Source: Arachnia propionica | GTDB lineage: Bacteria > Actinomycetota > Actinomycetes > Propionibacteriales > Propionibacteriaceae | DNA length: 32,232 nucleotides | Assembly: GCF_003932785.1 (NCBI RefSeq) | Contig: NZ_RQYT01000035.1 | Span: 1-32,232 of the forward strand | Direction of reading: 5' to 3' | Part shown: piece after piece, positions 11,953 to 16,412 of the stretch | Layout of the letters: every line of letters begins with the position of its first letter | How positions within the stretch are numbered: position 1 is the stretch's first letter | Position numbers and translations under genes: made by a program | The notes under the pieces: model-generated | Databases searched by the model: none | What the model saw: only the letters and a program-made list of their open reading frames with translations | What the model was told of the DNA's origin: nothing

Positions 11953-13464
11953 TCAGTAAGCGAACGACATCGGGGCGTCGGGATCGGAGGTCACCTTCGG
12001 TTCCTTGACGTCGGGCAGACCCTTGACCGTGTAGTGGAGGAACAGCTTGACCTCGATCACCGCGAGCACCCCGTAGAGCACGGTGTAGACGATCAACGAG
12101 AACAGCACCTCTGCGGCACTGGCCGTGGGGGAGACGCCGGATGCGGTGGGCAGCACGCCCGCCACCAGCCAGGGCTGGCGGCCCATCTCGGTGAAGATCC
12201 AGCCGAAGGAGATCGCGAACAGGGGCATCAGCGGCATCGCCGTCATGAGCGTCGTCCACAGCTTAGACGCCTTCGGGGTACGGCCCCCGCGCAGGGTGAA
12301 CAGCAGGTAGATGCCGATGAGCAGCCCGGCGCCGCCGAGCCCCATCATGGCGCGGAAGCTCCAGTAGGCGACGTTGACGTCGGGGATCGGGTCGAAGTTC
12401 TTGCCCTGGCTCTCCAGCGACTGGACATAGGCCTTGACGTTCTCGGCGTACTGCTCCTGCAGCTTCGTGCGCTCGCCGTTGTAGTTGACGAAGCCCTTCT
12501 CCGCGAACTCGGTGCGGATGGTGTCGATGCCCTTGATGTGGGGCACGCCGGCGATGAAGGAGAGCACTCCAGGGATCGGGGCCTTGATCTCGACGACAGC
12601 CTCTGTCTGGTCGGCGTTGGGGATGGTGAGCAGCGAGAAGTCAGCGGTGTCCTGGAAGGCGCCCTCGGCCGCGGCCAGCTTGTAGGGCTGCATGACGGTG
12701 ATGGCCTTCGCCTGGGCGTCGCCGGAGAGGAAGGTCAGGGCGGAGGAGACGATGAGCACCCAGGCGCCGAACTTTGCGGCCCAGCGGTAGGCGAGCACGT
12801 CGTCGGCGGAGACCTCGTCGTTGCCGTTCGCCCTGGCCAGGTGCCAGCCAGCGATGCCCGCGACGAGGCCACCCGCGACCATGTAGGAGGCGGTGATGAC
12901 GTGCGGGAGCGCTGACAGCAGCAGCGGGTTCAGCAGCACCTCGACGAAGCCGCTGACGCCGTCGAGCTCAGCGCGACCCAGCTCCTCGTTGAACTTCGCG
13001 CCAACCGGGTTCTGCATCCACGAGTTCGCGGCGAGGATGAACACCGAGGAGATCACGGTGCCGATGCTGGCGGCGTAGATGCACAGCAGGTGGATCTTCT
13101 TCGGCAGCTTGTCCCAGCCGAAGATCCACAGTCCGATGAAGGTTGACTCCAGGAAGAAGGCGATCAACGCCTCCAGGGCCAGCGGGGCACCGAAGATGTC
13201 ACCGACGAAGCGGGAGTACTCGGACCAGTTCATGCCGAACTGGAACTCCTGCACGATGCCGGTGACGACACCGAGGGCGAAGTTGATGAGGAACAGCTTG
13301 CCAAAGAACTTGGTCAACCGCAGGAAGCGTTCCTGCCCGGTCCGAACCCAGATCGTCTGCATGACCGCCACGAGCATGGACATGGCGATGGTGATGGGCA
13401 CGAAGAGAAAGTGGTAGACGGTTGTGACACCGAACTGCCACCGGGCGATAGTCACCGGATCCAT
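11953..13464 (-). CDS. cydA: Cytochrome bd ubiquinol/menaquinol oxidase subunit I
   Basis: A 503-residue membrane protein carrying the hemes of cytochrome bd. The conserved heme-ligand His is H18 in R-W-Q-F-G-x-x-x-x-Y-H-F, and the G-W-x-x-x-E-M-G-R-Q-P-W motif ends at about 432. The Q-loop region is of the short type found in Gram-positive bacteria. It is the first gene of cydABDC. A -35/-10 pair (TTGCGT, 17 bases, TAGCTT) puts the transcription start at the ATG, so the mRNA is predicted to be leaderless. The repeat-flanked nuclease unit ends about 108 bases upstream on the same strand, so read-through from it could affect cyd expression. Confidence 0.93.
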   Translation of the reverse strand: MDPVTIARWQFGVTTVYHFLFVPITIAMSMLVAVMQTIWVRTGQERFLRLTKFFGKLFLINFALGVVTGIVQEFQFGMNWSEYSRFVGDIFGAPLALEALIAFFLESTFIGLWIFGWDKLPKKIHLLCIYAASIGTVISSVFILAANSWMQNPVGAKFNEELGRAELDGVSGFVEVLLNPLLLSALPHVITASYMVAGGLVAGIAGWHLARANGNDEVSADDVLAYRWAAKFGAWVLIVSSALTFLSGDAQAKAITVMQPYKLAAAEGAFQDTADFSLLTIPNADQTEAVVEIKAPIPGVLSFIAGVPHIKGIDTIRTEFAEKGFVNYNGERTKLQEQYAENVKAYVQSLESQGKNFDPIPDVNVAYWSFRAMMGLGGAGLLIGIYLLFTLRGGRTPKASKLWTTLMTAMPLMPLFAISFGWIFTEMGRQPWLVAGVLPTASGVSPTASAAEVLFSLIVYTVLYGVLAVIEVKLFLHYTVKGLPDVKEPKVTSDPDAPMSFAY

Positions 13465-13470
13465 GCGCGA

Positions 13471-13499
13471 AAGCTACTACGGGAAGGCCTTTCACGCAA
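13471..13499 (-). promoter_or_regulatory. Promoter of the cydABDC operon
   Basis: On the minus strand TTGCGT (13499-13494) and TAGCTT (13476-13471) are separated by exactly 17 bases. Six bases (TCGCGC) then lead to the cydA ATG at 13464, with no ribosome site, fitting leaderless initiation. Confidence 0.5.
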
Positions 13500-13571
13500 G
13501 ATTCGGACGACATGTCTCCACCCGTCGGGCGCACCCACCCAGCGCCCCGCCCCCGCCCCGGAACCGGCGCA

Positions 13572-13622
13572 TTATGTCATTTTAGGTGGTTATCGGTCCG
13601 TTTTCCCCAACAATGCATAACT
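13572..13622 (-). repeat. Left 51-bp inverted repeat
   Basis: It overlaps the end of the nuclease gene: read on the minus strand it encodes the last ten residues (S-Y-A-L-L-G-K-T-D-R) and the TAA stop, then continues 18 bases as ACCTAAAATGACATAA-type 3' sequence. It is AT-rich compared with its surroundings. Confidence 0.85.
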
Positions 13623-14546
13623 TCTCGGTCCGGCGCAGCGGTAACAGCGTCGAAGAGCGCCGTCCCACCCGCGTTGGCTGAGGGCCAGGGCCACCTCCTC
13701 GGCCACGCGACAGGGGTCCCCGACGACGTCGCGCCATCCGTAGCGCAGCGTCGCCCAGCCGAGGGTGAGAACGGTCCGGTTGTCGCGACGCCGATCGCGC
13801 GCCTCGTCGTGGAACTCGCGGCCGTCGACCTCGATCACGAGCTGGTGGTCCTCGTAGGTGCCGTCGAAGACCGCGCCGGGCAGCCGCGAGTCCTGGCGGG
13901 TGAGGGTGGGCAGCCGGTGCGCGCGTTCGACGAACATCCAGTAGCGCCACTCCAGCAGGCTGTGGACCCCGTTGTCCGCGTGGGACAGGAGATCCTCCAC
14001 CGGGAGTCTGTGGTGGGCGCGCGTGGCTGCCCTGAAAGCGGCACCCAGGGCCTGCGCCGTCGTGCGACGCGTGCCGAGGGCATGGGTGACTGCGGCCATG
14101 AGCTCGTCCTCGGTGGCGTCGAGAGAGTAGTCGACCAGCGTTTCGGGGACCGGGAGGCGACGGGGATGGCCCAGGGAGGGCCTCGATCCCTGGCGGAACT
14201 GGATCCGCTGCTCACCGACCCAGAAGTGCCGCCGGACCCGGCCGCGGGGTACCCAGATCGGCACGAGGTGGGGGTCGCGTCGGGTGAGCCCGTGGAGTCG
14301 GGCCGCGGCCTCTCCACCCACGACGGCACCGTCGCCTCCCCGGAGGAGTCCGGCCCAGACCGCGGACTCCCAGGTCGGGGTGGTGGTGCAGAAGATGCCC
14401 TGACTGAGTCGGCGCCACTCTCCCAGGCACAGTCCACGGATCCGCTCGTAGGTGAGGCCGGCGGCGAGGGCCTGGGTGACGGTGATGACGCCGCCCTGGT
14501 CGGCGGCGAGGTCGAGCAGCGGCGTGGGCAGGAAGGGGAGTCTCAT
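13590..14546 (-). CDS. AbiEi-like winged-helix plus Vsr/DUF559-type nuclease-fold protein
   Basis: A protein of about 318 residues. The N-terminal 50 residues (G-V-I-T-V-T-Q-A-L-A-A-G-L, then W-R-R-L-S-Q-G-I-F) look like the winged-helix domain of AbiEi-type regulators. The C-terminal ~100 residues fit a Vsr/DUF559 PD-(D/E)XK nuclease fold: V-F-D-G, L-V-I-E-V-D-G-R-E-F-H, D-R-R-R-D-N and L-G-W-A-T-L-R-Y. Candidate metal ligands are Asp and Glu/Asp of F-D-G and E-V-D. ATG 14546 or GTG 14552 could start it; neither has a clear ribosome site. The last ten residues are encoded inside the left inverted repeat. Such proteins are common singletons in Actinobacteria, mostly of unknown role; DNA cleavage or nicking is inferred. 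Confidence 0.8.
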   Translation of the reverse strand: MRLPFLPTPLLDLAADQGGVITVTQALAAGLTYERIRGLCLGEWRRLSQGIFCTTTPTWESAVWAGLLRGGDGAVVGGEAAARLHGLTRRDPHLVPIWVPRGRVRRHFWVGEQRIQFRQGSRPSLGHPRRLPVPETLVDYSLDATEDELMAAVTHALGTRRTTAQALGAAFRAATRAHHRLPVEDLLSHADNGVHSLLEWRYWMFVERAHRLPTLTRQDSRLPGAVFDGTYEDHQLVIEVDGREFHDEARDRRRDNRTVLTLGWATLRYGWRDVVGDPCRVAEEVALALSQRGWDGALRRCYRCAGPRSYALLGKTDR

Positions 14547-14625
14547 GCCCACACTGTGGGCGGAAGGAGCCCACGGTGAGTCACCCCGTCGCCAGGCTGT
14601 GGAAAAGTCCCGCAGACGTGCCCGC

Positions 14626-14676
14626 AGTTATGGATTGTTGGGCGAAACGGACCGATAAACACCTAAAATGACATAA
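14626..14676 (+). repeat. Right 51-bp inverted repeat
   Basis: Matches the left repeat in inverted orientation at 47 of 51 positions. It lies about 80 bases upstream of the nuclease start codon. Read on the plus strand it preserves the open frame S-Y-G-L-L-G-E-T-D-R-stop, the counterpart of the nuclease C-terminus, although no gene appears to end here. Confidence 0.85.
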
Positions 14677-14705
14677 GGCGGGGGGAGTCGGTGGGGGGAG
14701 GGGCG

Positions 14706-16412
14706 TCAGGGGGTGGCGGAGTTGGTCGAGATGCCCGGGCGGCCCTCGTGGACGATCTTGCCCGGGTTCAGGTTGCGGCCGGGGTCGACCCCCTCGAACA
14801 GCGTCCGCTGGATGAACACACCCGCCGGTGAGATGTCCTGCTCCATCCACGGCGAGTGCTCCTCGCCGACACCGTGGTGGTGGCTGACCGTGCCGTGGAA
14901 GTCCATGAACGACTGCTGGATCACACGTTTGACGTGGTCGTAGCTCGCCATCGCCGTCTCCGAGTCGTCCGCGATCGCGAACGTGAAGTACTGGCACGCC
15001 CCCGAGTGGTACGAGTGCGACAGATGGCAGAACACCGTGCCACGCTTGCCGATCTCGGCGAGGGCCTCGTGCACCCGGGCGACGGTGCGGTCGTGGATCT
15101 CCGCCGCGTGGCGCCACGGCGTCGTCGTCTCCGACACGTCGCAGACCATGCCGTGATCCAGCATGAAGTCACGCAGATAGGGGGTGTCGTACTTCTTCTG
15201 GTCGTACAGGGTGCCGGGCCCCTTCCCGACGCCCATCCCGCCGTTCGCCCGCACGATCTTGCCCACCAGGCCCTTCTCGTACGTGACGTGGTTGGCCGAC
15301 CCCTCGAACCCGATGAAGCTCATCGCGATCCGCTCCAGGTCCCAGCCCTTCGCCTCCATCAGCTTCGAGATGCCCTTGCTCAGCCAGGACGACAACGTCG
15401 AGGACTTCTTGCCGTTGGCCATGATGTACTGCGTCTCCACCGCGTCGGACACCCGCGCCATCATGACGCTCGCATCCGAGGCGACGATCTGCTCGCACGC
15501 CTTCAGCCCGTCCTCGTAGGTGGGGAAGAAGTACGCCTGGATCTCCCGGACCTCCGGGATGCGGTGCACGTTCACCCAGGCCGAGGTGATGATGCCCAAC
15601 CGGCCCTCGGAGCCGATGACCATCTCCCGCACCGACGGCCCCGACGACGTCGACGGCAGCGGACGAAGCGTCAGCACCTGGCCCGGCATCACCATCGTCA
15701 GCCCCCGGCAGATGTCCGCGATGTCGCCGTACTTGTCCGACTGCATCCCCGACGACCGCGTCGCGATCCAGCCGCCCAGCGTCGACCACACGAACGAGTC
15801 CGGGTGATGCCCCATCGTCCAGCCACGCGCCTGGAGCTGCTCCTCCATGTCGGGGCCGAACACCCCCGCCTGGATGTGTGCCAGCCCCGACTGCTCGTCG
15901 ATCTCCAGCACCTTGTTGAGCCGCCCCAGGTTCACCGAGACGACCTGCCGCTTTTCGTCCGGCAGCGCCTCCAGGGCCGCGACGATGTTCGAGCCGCCTC
16001 CGAACGGGATCACCACGGCATCCGCATCGACCACCGCGTCGACGATCCCCTCGACCTCCGCCTGGGAGCCCGGGTAGACCACCACGTCGGGCAGCCGACC
16101 GAAATCACCGGAGCGTACCCGCATCAGGTCACGCACGCCCTTGCCGTAGCCGTGGACGACGCGGGTCTCGTCGTCGGTCTGGACGAAACCGGCCCCGCAG
16201 ATCGCCTCCAACCGCTCCCGCAGCGCTCCCGTGAGCTGTGACGGCGGGACATCGAGGTCCTCCAGCCGCGGCAGCGGCTTGACGGGGGCGTTGACGTCCA
16301 CCCCCGTCAGCTTCATCACGAACGGGGCGAACTTGGGCTTGTCGGCGTGGTGGTAGGACAGGCCCTCCTCACCCCAGCCCCACCACTTCTGCTGCTTCAC
16401 GCCGTCGATCAT
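14706..16412 (-). CDS. FAD-linked oxidase of the alkylglycerone-phosphate synthase (AGPS) family
   Basis: A 568-residue flavoprotein that is clearly AGPS-like. It opens with K-W-W-G-W-G. The FAD domain has P-F-G-G-G-S-N, L-G-G-W-I-A-T-R-S-S-G-M and G-S-E-G-R-L-G-I-I-T. The cap has S-H-S-Y-x-x-G-A-C-x-Y-F and the active-site H-H-H-G-V-G at 511-516, all matching eukaryotic AGPS. AGPS exchanges the acyl chain of acyl-dihydroxyacetone phosphate for a fatty alcohol, giving an ether bond. Its ATG overlaps the acyltransferase stop as ATGA (16409-16412). Other actinobacterial members (M. tuberculosis agpS) lack a firmly proven substrate, so a different hydroxy-acid or alcohol substrate remains possible. 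Confidence 0.85.
   Translation of the reverse strand: MIDGVKQQKWWGWGEEGLSYHHADKPKFAPFVMKLTGVDVNAPVKPLPRLEDLDVPPSQLTGALRERLEAICGAGFVQTDDETRVVHGYGKGVRDLMRVRSGDFGRLPDVVVYPGSQAEVEGIVDAVVDADAVVIPFGGGSNIVAALEALPDEKRQVVSVNLGRLNKVLEIDEQSGLAHIQAGVFGPDMEEQLQARGWTMGHHPDSFVWSTLGGWIATRSSGMQSDKYGDIADICRGLTMVMPGQVLTLRPLPSTSSGPSVREMVIGSEGRLGIITSAWVNVHRIPEVREIQAYFFPTYEDGLKACEQIVASDASVMMARVSDAVETQYIMANGKKSSTLSSWLSKGISKLMEAKGWDLERIAMSFIGFEGSANHVTYEKGLVGKIVRANGGMGVGKGPGTLYDQKKYDTPYLRDFMLDHGMVCDVSETTTPWRHAAEIHDRTVARVHEALAEIGKRGTVFCHLSHSYHSGACQYFTFAIADDSETAMASYDHVKRVIQQSFMDFHGTVSHHHGVGEEHSPWMEQDISPAGVFIQRTLFEGVDPGRNLNPGKIVHEGRPGISTNSATP

What the first reader, a model, noticed from the sequence alone, without database searches (positions are those of the whole stretch)
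13572..14676. Nuclease-fold gene framed by 51-bp inverted repeats: possible minimal mobile or invertible unit
The repeats at 13572-13622 and 14626-14676 agree at 47 of 51 positions, are AT-rich in a GC-rich region, and enclose exactly one gene, an AbiEi-like winged-helix plus Vsr/DUF559 PD-(D/E)XK protein. Each repeat is also an imperfect hairpin with TTATG/CATAA ends, as in REP elements whose partner gene spreads them. The element lacks a known transposase, so the nuclease itself could be the mobilising or repeat-processing enzyme. DUF559-type proteins are abundant in Actinobacteria without clear function; a repeat-associated nuclease would be a new type of system. Visible: repeats, gene, fold motifs. 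Inferred: mobility.
Basis: partly seen in the sequence, partly recalled or inferred. Interest (0 to 1): 0.8.

Follow-up and report, generated by a model that had tools for sequence, protein, structure and literature searches.

The report
Dispersed repeats framing a flipped gene
Two copies of a short DNA repeat that is scattered between genes in a few related actinobacteria bracket one nuclease-like gene, and the gene between them is turned around relative to its relatives; the nuclease does not appear to spread the repeats, but one end of the repeat is identical to half of the cell's own chromosome-separation site.

Summary
The 51-bp inverted repeats are real (47/51). They are not the ends of a DUF559 element. 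They are two of about 16 copies of a repeat scattered between genes of this genome, with the same kind of repeat in two related genomes (10 and 12 copies). The genome has one DUF559 match above Pfam's cut-off (the window's) and one weak match without a repeat. In two sister species the same gene sits in the same slot with an arm-bearing element on one side only, so gene and repeat pair arrived separately.

Unexpected features: the copies start with TTATGTCATTT, identical to the XerD arm of this genome's dif site; they follow a C-rich, G-poor stretch; and at two loci (a third from one side) a copy resembles its own genome's copies more than its counterpart in another species. Against a Xer role: in G002, G004 and G005 the dif arm differs from the dispersed arm, and the copies that could be placed lie far from the terminus.

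Verdict: a new variant of dispersed intergenic repeats; the inversion is probably a by-product.

The parts
13572..13622 (+). Left repeat copy (winL): TTATGTCATTT arm at 13572-13582, then variable interior, then CCAACAATGCATAACT end
   Evidence: member of a dispersed family
14626..14676 (-). Right repeat copy (winR), same family, 47/51 identical to winL and inverted
13572..13582 (+). Arm identical to the XerD-side arm of the genome's dif site (TTATGTCATTT)
   Evidence: dif at G000:C2:104300-104327; longest exact match to dif of 11 or more in 24 of 20000 shuffles of winL
14666..14676 (-). Same 11-base arm on the right copy
13590..14552 (-). AbiEi-like winged helix plus DUF559 (PD-(D/E)XK-like) gene, 320 aa; reading frame ends inside the left repeat
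13530..13569 (+). C-rich, G-poor stretch upstream of the left arm (C 0.62, G 0.25 over 40 bases)
14679..14718 (-). C-rich, G-poor stretch upstream of the right arm, read on the minus strand (C 0.70, G 0.12 over 40 bases)
13635..14561 (.). Inverted segment: 13690-14561 aligns in reverse to G034, 13635-14156 to G010, and shorter stretches to G005 and G002, relative to collinear flanks (13301-13519 and 14652-14900 with G034)
11953..13464 (-). Cytochrome bd oxidase subunit I-like gene, left neighbour; used as synteny anchor
14706..16412 (-). FAD-linked oxidase-like gene (GlcD-like stretch), right neighbour; used as synteny anchor

Best explanation
The two 51-bp inverted repeats are independent members of a clade-restricted family of small dispersed intergenic repeats (REP/MITE-like in habit). 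They are not the ends of a DUF559 element. The DUF559 gene is an older resident of the slot between the FAD-oxidase and cytochrome bd genes. An arm-bearing element stands on the cytochrome side in all five species compared (so it is probably old); a repeat on the FAD side is seen only in G000, G010 and G034. Because the two copies lie in opposite orientation they can act as crossover sites, and the gene between them was turned around on the way to this genome (shown by synteny; the enzyme, RecA-type homologous recombination or a site-specific recombinase, is inferred). Each copy begins with an 11-base arm that matches the XerD arm of dif and is preceded by a C-rich stretch. Part of the remaining sequence is homogenised within a genome, which implies copying or gene conversion by a trans-acting activity that I could not identify.
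For: About 16 copies in G000 (14, taking C115/C117 as one interrupted copy and leaving out the dif hit, plus C171b and degenerate C99); reversed-pattern control 0. 10 copies in G010 and 12 in G034. Of 45 arm sites examined none lies wholly inside a predicted ORF (a rough ORF caller; three overlap an ORF's edge, the window's left copy among them). One DUF559 match over the cut-off in G000. Orthologous gene in G005 and G002 in the same slot with an arm on the cytochrome side only. Inner segment reversed, flanks collinear, against four relatives. Sites without the repeat: at C145b the flanking genes abut in G002 and G004, and G062 has other sequence there; at C115/C117 G062 has a short gap without it. 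Homogenisation: interior identity of G000 to G034 orthologues 0.47, 0.50 and 0.69, against 0.83-0.85 to its own paralogues.
Against: Only one inversion was seen, so 'invertible' rests on one event. G000 is a 181-contig draft, and a mis-oriented 1-kb segment between 51-bp repeats cannot be fully excluded. Direct evidence of mobility is thin: sites without the repeat have diverged flanks, and the C-rich stretch is absent there too. No transposase was identified, but only Y1 was looked for. Homogenisation is not general: for the third locus the G034 copy is no closer to its own paralogues than to its G000 orthologue (0.69 and 0.69), at C171b the orthologue is closest (0.94), and two of three further G010/G034 pairs are (slightly) closest to each other.
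Confidence: 0.75

Rival explanations
1. Xer-exploiting module: the repeats are half- or composite Xer sites, and XerC/XerD (not the nuclease) invert or mobilise what lies between them, a chromosomal actinobacterial counterpart of the Acinetobacter dif modules, which are also single genes between inverted Xer sites.
For: Arm identical to the dif XerD arm in G000, G010 and G034; matches to dif this long in 24 of 20000 shuffles. A second motif 18 bases in (TTATCGGGCAT in G010/G034) resembles the inverted XerC arm, at best 10 of 11 bases in G010, 9 of 11 in G034, 8 of 11 in G000; mean over 37 copies 7.4 against 6.0 for shuffles. G002 and G005 carry an 81-bp element with the arm at both ends. One framed gene is inverted.
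Against: The XerC-like and XerD-like arms stand head to tail 7 bases apart, not facing each other across 6 bases as in dif. In G002, G004 and G005 the dif-like site reads TTATGTAATT-, while the dispersed arm stays TTATGTCATTT. The XerC-like match is absent in seven G000 copies (5-6 of 11). The shuffle test is post hoc.
Confidence: 0.22
2. One reading: the DUF559 protein mobilises or processes the repeats.
For: The gene or its remnant lies between two copies in three genomes, and the residues expected of a PD-(D/E)XK site (D230, E241, D243; expectation recalled) are invariant in 11 homologues.
Against: G010 keeps 10 copies but only a truncated DUF559 gene at this locus. The weak second DUF559 match in G000 has no repeat, and by my reading 22 of the 27 genomes with homologues have no dispersed arms. 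The gene is present in G005 and G002 without the repeat pair.
Confidence: 0.03
3. XerD-binding sites that unload SMC or organise the chromosome, as reported for the Bacillus subtilis terminus, without recombination.
For: The arm matches XerD's half site; position and orientation of the cytochrome-side arm are kept in five species while its neighbouring sequence differs between two groups of them.
Against: Nine copies at seven places could be placed on complete G004 through flanking genes; they lie 56-578 kb from dnaA, none near dif at about 1.69 Mb. Five copies (C108, C171a, C130, C94, C125) gave no confident match, the search scored only 40 of 207 first-look candidates in G004, and two copies were not tried.
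Confidence: 0.07
4. Transcript 3'-end element: a C-rich (rut-like) stretch plus an AT-rich element acting in Rho-dependent termination.
For: C-rich, G-poor upstream stretch (mean C 0.48, G 0.23; C above G in 43 of 45; z 11.5 against random 40-mers of fetched G000 sequence). Upstream gene on the same strand in 28 of 45, often ending within tens of bases. Two copies lie just beyond a 5S-rRNA-like end and terminator.
Against: 28 of 45 is not far from half; 17 lie behind a gene of opposite orientation. No conserved RNA structure. An invariant 11-14 base arm is not expected of a Rho site.
Confidence: 0.1
5. The inversion is an assembly error across the repeats.
For: G000 is a 181-contig draft; the flip involves the repeat-bounded segment.
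Against: The repeats are only 51 bp and differ at 4 positions, so ordinary reads would span them (read data not seen).
Confidence: 0.08

Closest known systems
REP/BIME elements and MITEs (dispersed small intergenic repeats; recalled)
   Same: Short, intergenic, tens of copies or fewer, species-specific variants, sometimes in inverted pairs
   Different: No Y1 transposase of the REP-partner type in the genome, no consensus hairpin, no target duplication seen by eye, and one end identical to a dif half site
dif (p-dif) modules of Acinetobacter plasmids and chromosomes (PMC6449649 passages; PMC12907356 abstract and outline)
   Same: Single genes bracketed by inverted repeats related to Xer sites
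   Different: Here only one arm matches exactly, arm order differs from a 28-bp dif, most copies are solitary, and the host is an actinobacterium; PMC6449649 says such extra sites and modules are not commonly found in other bacteria
IMEX, mobile elements exploiting Xer (PMC5357621 passages)
   Same: Carry dif-like attachment sites
   Different: The ones described there integrate at dif or dif-like sites; these copies lie elsewhere, and three viral-contig scans with related patterns found nothing
XerD sites for SMC unloading (Karaboja 2021; paper not held, seen only as cited in passages of PMC11898615 and PMC12322038)
   Same: XerD half-site sequence outside dif (that the known sites are half sites is recalled)
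   Different: Known role is at the terminus; the copies placed here are in the origin-proximal third
AbiEi / DUF559 proteins (Pfam PF13338, PF04480; PADLOC AbiEi)
   Same: The framed protein matches AbiEi-like N-terminal and DUF559 C-terminal models
   Different: By my reading of the ORF list no second gene, hence no AbiEii-type partner, lies in the framed segment

Membership tests
Transposon with DUF559 as its mobilising gene | Gene and both repeats gained or lost as one unit; sister sites empty of both | tested here: not met
   G005 and G002 have the gene in the same slot with an arm on one side only; G010 has the repeats with a truncated gene
Transposon with DUF559 as its mobilising gene | Repeat copies linked to DUF559 genes | tested here: not met
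   about 16 copies against one DUF559 match over the cut-off in G000
REP elements with RAYT | Y1 (HUH) transposase in the genome | tested here: not met
   PF01797: 0 matches at E 0.1 or better; 8 of 14 control genomes ring
REP elements with RAYT | Conserved imperfect hairpin | tested here: not met
   0 consensus pairs in 14 copies; mixed single-copy folds
MITE | Terminal inverted repeats, target duplication and a related autonomous transposon | tested here: inconclusive
   Ends TTATG.../...CATAA are inverted but imperfect; no target duplication noticed by eye in flanks; no autonomous source looked for beyond Y1
dif module / Xer site | 28-bp site: XerC arm, 6-bp centre, XerD arm in facing orientation | tested here: not met
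   Only the XerD-like arm is exact; the XerC-like motif is head to tail with it at a 7-base distance
dif module / Xer site | Recombination by XerC/XerD | not testable with these tools
   needs binding and recombination assays
XerD site for SMC unloading | Clustered in the replication terminus | tested here: not met
   Nine placed copies at 56-578 kb from dnaA in G004; five copies gave no confident match in a capped search, two were not tried
Invertible segment | Both orientations found between inverted repeats | tested here: met
   Between species only: G000 against G034 and G010 (both with the repeat pair) and G005, G002 (without it); within one strain not testable
DUF559 / AbiEi protein family | Matches to family models | tested here: met
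   PF04480 23.9 bits over cut-off 20.6; AbiEi_4 23.5 bits, just under 25; PADLOC AbiEi 1.4e-15

The most novel reading that the evidence does not exclude
A family of small chromosomal elements in Arachnia-type actinobacteria uses the host's XerD half-site as its own terminus, so that the cell's chromosome-dimer resolution enzymes spread, homogenise and invert short gene-bearing segments: a dif-module-like system outside Acinetobacter, built from half sites with a C-rich leader instead of full dif sites.
Probability: 0.18. Interest if true: 0.75.

Novelty: new variant of a known kind. Interest (0 to 1): 0.45.

Why it matters
It replaces a tempting reading (a nuclease that spreads its own repeats) with a testable one. 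If the exact match of the repeat's conserved end to the dif XerD arm is functional, Xer recombination would have a second, genome-wide use in these actinobacteria. If it is not, the family is still a compact case of dispersed intergenic repeats that are partly homogenised within a genome at fixed loci, with one framed gene that has flipped.

Tried and rejected
DUF559 as mobiliser: rejected. RAYT partner: none. C125/C91 contig ends as ends of a larger insertion element: rejected, the shared 3' flank looks like a 5S rRNA end plus terminator (recognised from recall, Rfam was run only on the window, 0 hits). RNA or DNA hairpin: not supported. Integron attC: considered from memory only, end polarity differs; not tested. 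The G002/G005 81-bp element first looked like two different insertion sites; cross-alignment showed one shared locus with a 1-kb difference beside it, so that argument for mobility was dropped. Terminus clustering (SMC unloading): not supported. KOPS-like reading of the G-rich opposite strand: looked at by eye, dropped. Named-genome scan for the repeat: 0 hits, with own and near genomes possibly left out. Three viral-contig pattern scans: 0 hits. Plasmid search: one 34-base hit in an Azospirillum plasmid, taken as chance. Solved-structure search for the DUF559 protein: 0. Rows dropped: one search left out interrupted or internally deleted copies (L028, L078, L079, L082) and, from the G034 paralogue set, L089; searches do not include the C99 and C115 fragments. 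In one search the single hits in G004, G030 and G032 were set aside (two taken as chance, G032 is its dif). Arms were retrieved by the arm itself, so their invariance there is circular; the independent retrieval is (whole-repeat query). One search's pattern covers TTATGTCANTT only, so genomes with other arm variants would be missed; its reversed control gave 7 places against 67.

Full report
WHAT IS THERE. The two repeats are at 13572-13622 (+) and 14626-14676 (-), identical at 47 of 51 positions and 39% GC each. The gene between them (13590-14552, minus strand, 320 aa) has an AbiEi-like N-terminus and a DUF559 C-terminus (PADLOC AbiEi 1.4e-15). D230, E241 and D243, which I take from recall to be the PD-(D/E)XK site, are invariant in 11 homologues. 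The reading frame runs into the left repeat: the stop and the last 10 codons lie in it. The G034 orthologue ends before its repeat without that tail; of 10 homologues checked, 6 end within 4 residues of the last conserved motif and 4 have unrelated tails. Hairpin formation is weak for the window copies and there is no consensus structure over 14 copies.

A DISPERSED FAMILY. Searching the window's own genome (G000, 3.49 Mb, 181 contigs) with the left repeat gave 16 matches: the two in the window, 13 elsewhere that are copies or pieces of copies, and one that is dif (identified). The 14-base left end with up to 2 mismatches gave 17 places (control 0): it adds C171b and a degenerate copy at C99. 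C115 and C117 carry the two halves of one copy interrupted by an insertion: their neighbours map next to each other in G002, G004, G005 and G062 (junctions). That makes about 16 copies. Among relatives, (60 genomes, up to 1 mismatch) found 7 genomes with matches including G000. G010 has 10 copies and G034 12 (with the extra arm); G006 has one copy; the single hits in G004 and G030 look like chance and that in G032 is its dif. Of 45 arm sites examined in seven genomes none lies wholly inside a predicted ORF; three overlap an ORF's edge (rough ORF caller).

NO LINK TO DUF559. G000 has one DUF559 match over the family cut-off (the window's) and one below it, at C14, where no arm is found. Homologues of the window protein match in 27 of 39 genus genomes, up to 8 matches per genome. 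By my reading only 7 of the 39 (G000, G002, G004, G005, G006, G010, G034) show dispersed arms of this kind, 5 of them among the 27; G008 and G022 have extra dif-like sites instead, and G007 and G062 isolated hits that look like chance. sees only TTATGTCANTT; its reversed control gave 7 places against 67. In G005 and G002 the gene sits between the same two neighbours at 53-54% identity, with an arm on the cytochrome side only. In G062 the two neighbours are there without gene or arm. The gene therefore was not delivered by a repeat-bounded unit.

THE INVERSION. Aligning window 13301-14900 to G034 gives collinear matches at 13301-13519 and 14652-14900 and a reversed match at 13690-14561. G010 is reversed at 13635-14156, and G005 and G002 over shorter inner stretches, again with collinear flanks. 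With the flanking genes oriented alike, the gene points one way in G000 and the other way in all four relatives. Breakpoints fall in the intervals that hold the repeats. This is one event; whether it still switches is unknown, and a draft-assembly error is a remaining, unlikely alternative.

THE DIF CONNECTION. A dif-like pattern (up to 2 mismatches) was found in 30 of 39 genus genomes, once in 28 of them. In G000 it is at C2:104300-104327, and its XerD-side arm TTATGTCATTT is the conserved left end of the repeats; G010 and G034 have the same arm in dif. A match of 11 or more bases to dif arose in 24 of 20000 shuffles of the left repeat (simple shuffling by pairs of neighbouring bases, post hoc). 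TTATGTCANTT has 15 places in G000: dif and 14 repeat copies. A second motif resembling the inverted XerC arm has its best match 18 bases in for 31 of 37 copies: 10 of 11 bases in three G010 copies, 8 of 11 in seven of the eight G000 type-A copies, but only 5-6 of 11 in seven other G000 copies; the mean is 7.4 against 6.0 for shuffles. Against a Xer role: the arms are not arranged as in dif, and the dif-like site of G002, G004, G005 and G062 carries TTATGTAATT-, while the dispersed elements of G002, G005 and G004 keep TTATGTCATTT.

OTHER PROPERTIES. The 40 bases before the arm are C-rich and G-poor (mean C 0.48, G 0.23; C above G in 43 of 45; z 11.5 against random 40-mers of fetched G000 sequence). 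At three loci shared by G000 and G034 the interior of the G000 copy is more like its own paralogues (0.83-0.85) than its orthologue (0.47, 0.50, 0.69). Seen from G034, own paralogues are closer at two of the three (0.79 and 0.74) and tied at the third (0.69). For three further G010/G034 pairs orthologue identity is 0.86, 0.81 and 0.72 against 0.72-0.79 to paralogues, and at C171b the orthologue is closest (0.94). So homogenisation is seen between the more distant genomes, not everywhere. Sites without the repeat: at C145b the flanking genes abut in G002 and G004 and other sequence stands there in G062; at C115/C117 G062 has a short gap. Mapping flanking genes to complete G004 put nine copies at seven places, 56-60, 101, 240, 254, 315, 565 and 578 kb from dnaA, with the dif neighbourhood at 1.69 Mb. 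C108, C171a, C130, C94 and C125 gave no confident match there; the search scored 40 of 207 first-look candidates, so absence is weak; C171b and C99 were not tried.

MECHANISM. Shown: dispersed family, independent history of gene and repeat pair, one inversion bounded by the repeats, conserved arm, C-rich leader, partial homogenisation. Inferred: the inversion is recombination between the two copies; copying or conversion goes on within genomes; the enzyme is unknown. A Xer-based mechanism is the most interesting candidate and is not excluded.

COMPARISON. The nearest habit is that of REP/MITE repeats (recalled), without the REP partner. The nearest anatomical parallel is the Acinetobacter dif module (PMC6449649, passages; PMC12907356, abstract and outline); membership fails on site structure. 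Literature searches on dif with Actinobacteria, XerD with SMC, dif modules, Arachnia with repeats, and DUF559 with inverted repeats listed 11 of 11, 10 of 19, 12 of 33, 10 of 767 and 12 of 101 papers. None of the listed titles and abstract openings describes this repeat family; only open-licence PMC papers are covered.

Noticed in passing
L019:6951 to end, L028:5980 to end, L022:4858-5015, L079:3689-3848: A second small repeat of about 160 bp (160 in L079, 158 in L022) with inverted ends GAGGGTGCGCGG.../...CCGCGCACCCTC has inserted into copies of the first repeat (C115/C117 in G000, L079 in G010) and lies near others; TTA stands on both sides in L079, not in L022. Looks like a separate MITE.
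   Followed up: partly
L007, L008 (G000 C125 and C91, first 150 bases): Two contigs start with the same 5S-rRNA-like end and terminator followed by a repeat copy; a third place with the same end (C152) has no repeat match listed.
   Followed up: partly
G008:C1:1789256 and 1790899; G022:C27:42980: Extra full dif-like sites besides the main dif, 1.6 kb apart in G008: possible Xer-integrated elements.
   Followed up: no
L204:1501-1581 (G002), L225:1501-1581 (G005): An 81-bp element with the TTATGTCATTT arm at both ends at a shared locus; about 1 kb beside it, within a transporter-like gene, is present in G002 and missing in G005.
   Followed up: partly
L082:3591-4271 (G010): A gene pair beside a repeat copy matches a Phd/YefM antitoxin model (just under its cut-off) and a PIN-domain model; not tested against background.
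   Followed up: no
L023:5900-8392 (G000 C171), L089 (G034 C25): An array of related small paralogous genes (MDSTTPHLRWASRKLRG-type) with repeat copies beside them, 95% DNA identity between the two genomes over 2.4 kb.
   Followed up: no
G005:C1: Marker order in G005 is strongly rearranged against G004 (dnaA at 1.1 kb in both, but C145 markers at 1.98 Mb against 0.06 Mb): large rearrangement or odd assembly.
   Followed up: no
window 13590-13622: The DUF559 frame in G000 ends inside the repeat, giving a 10-codon tail encoded by it that the G034 orthologue lacks; an effect of the repeat or the inversion on the protein.
   Followed up: partly
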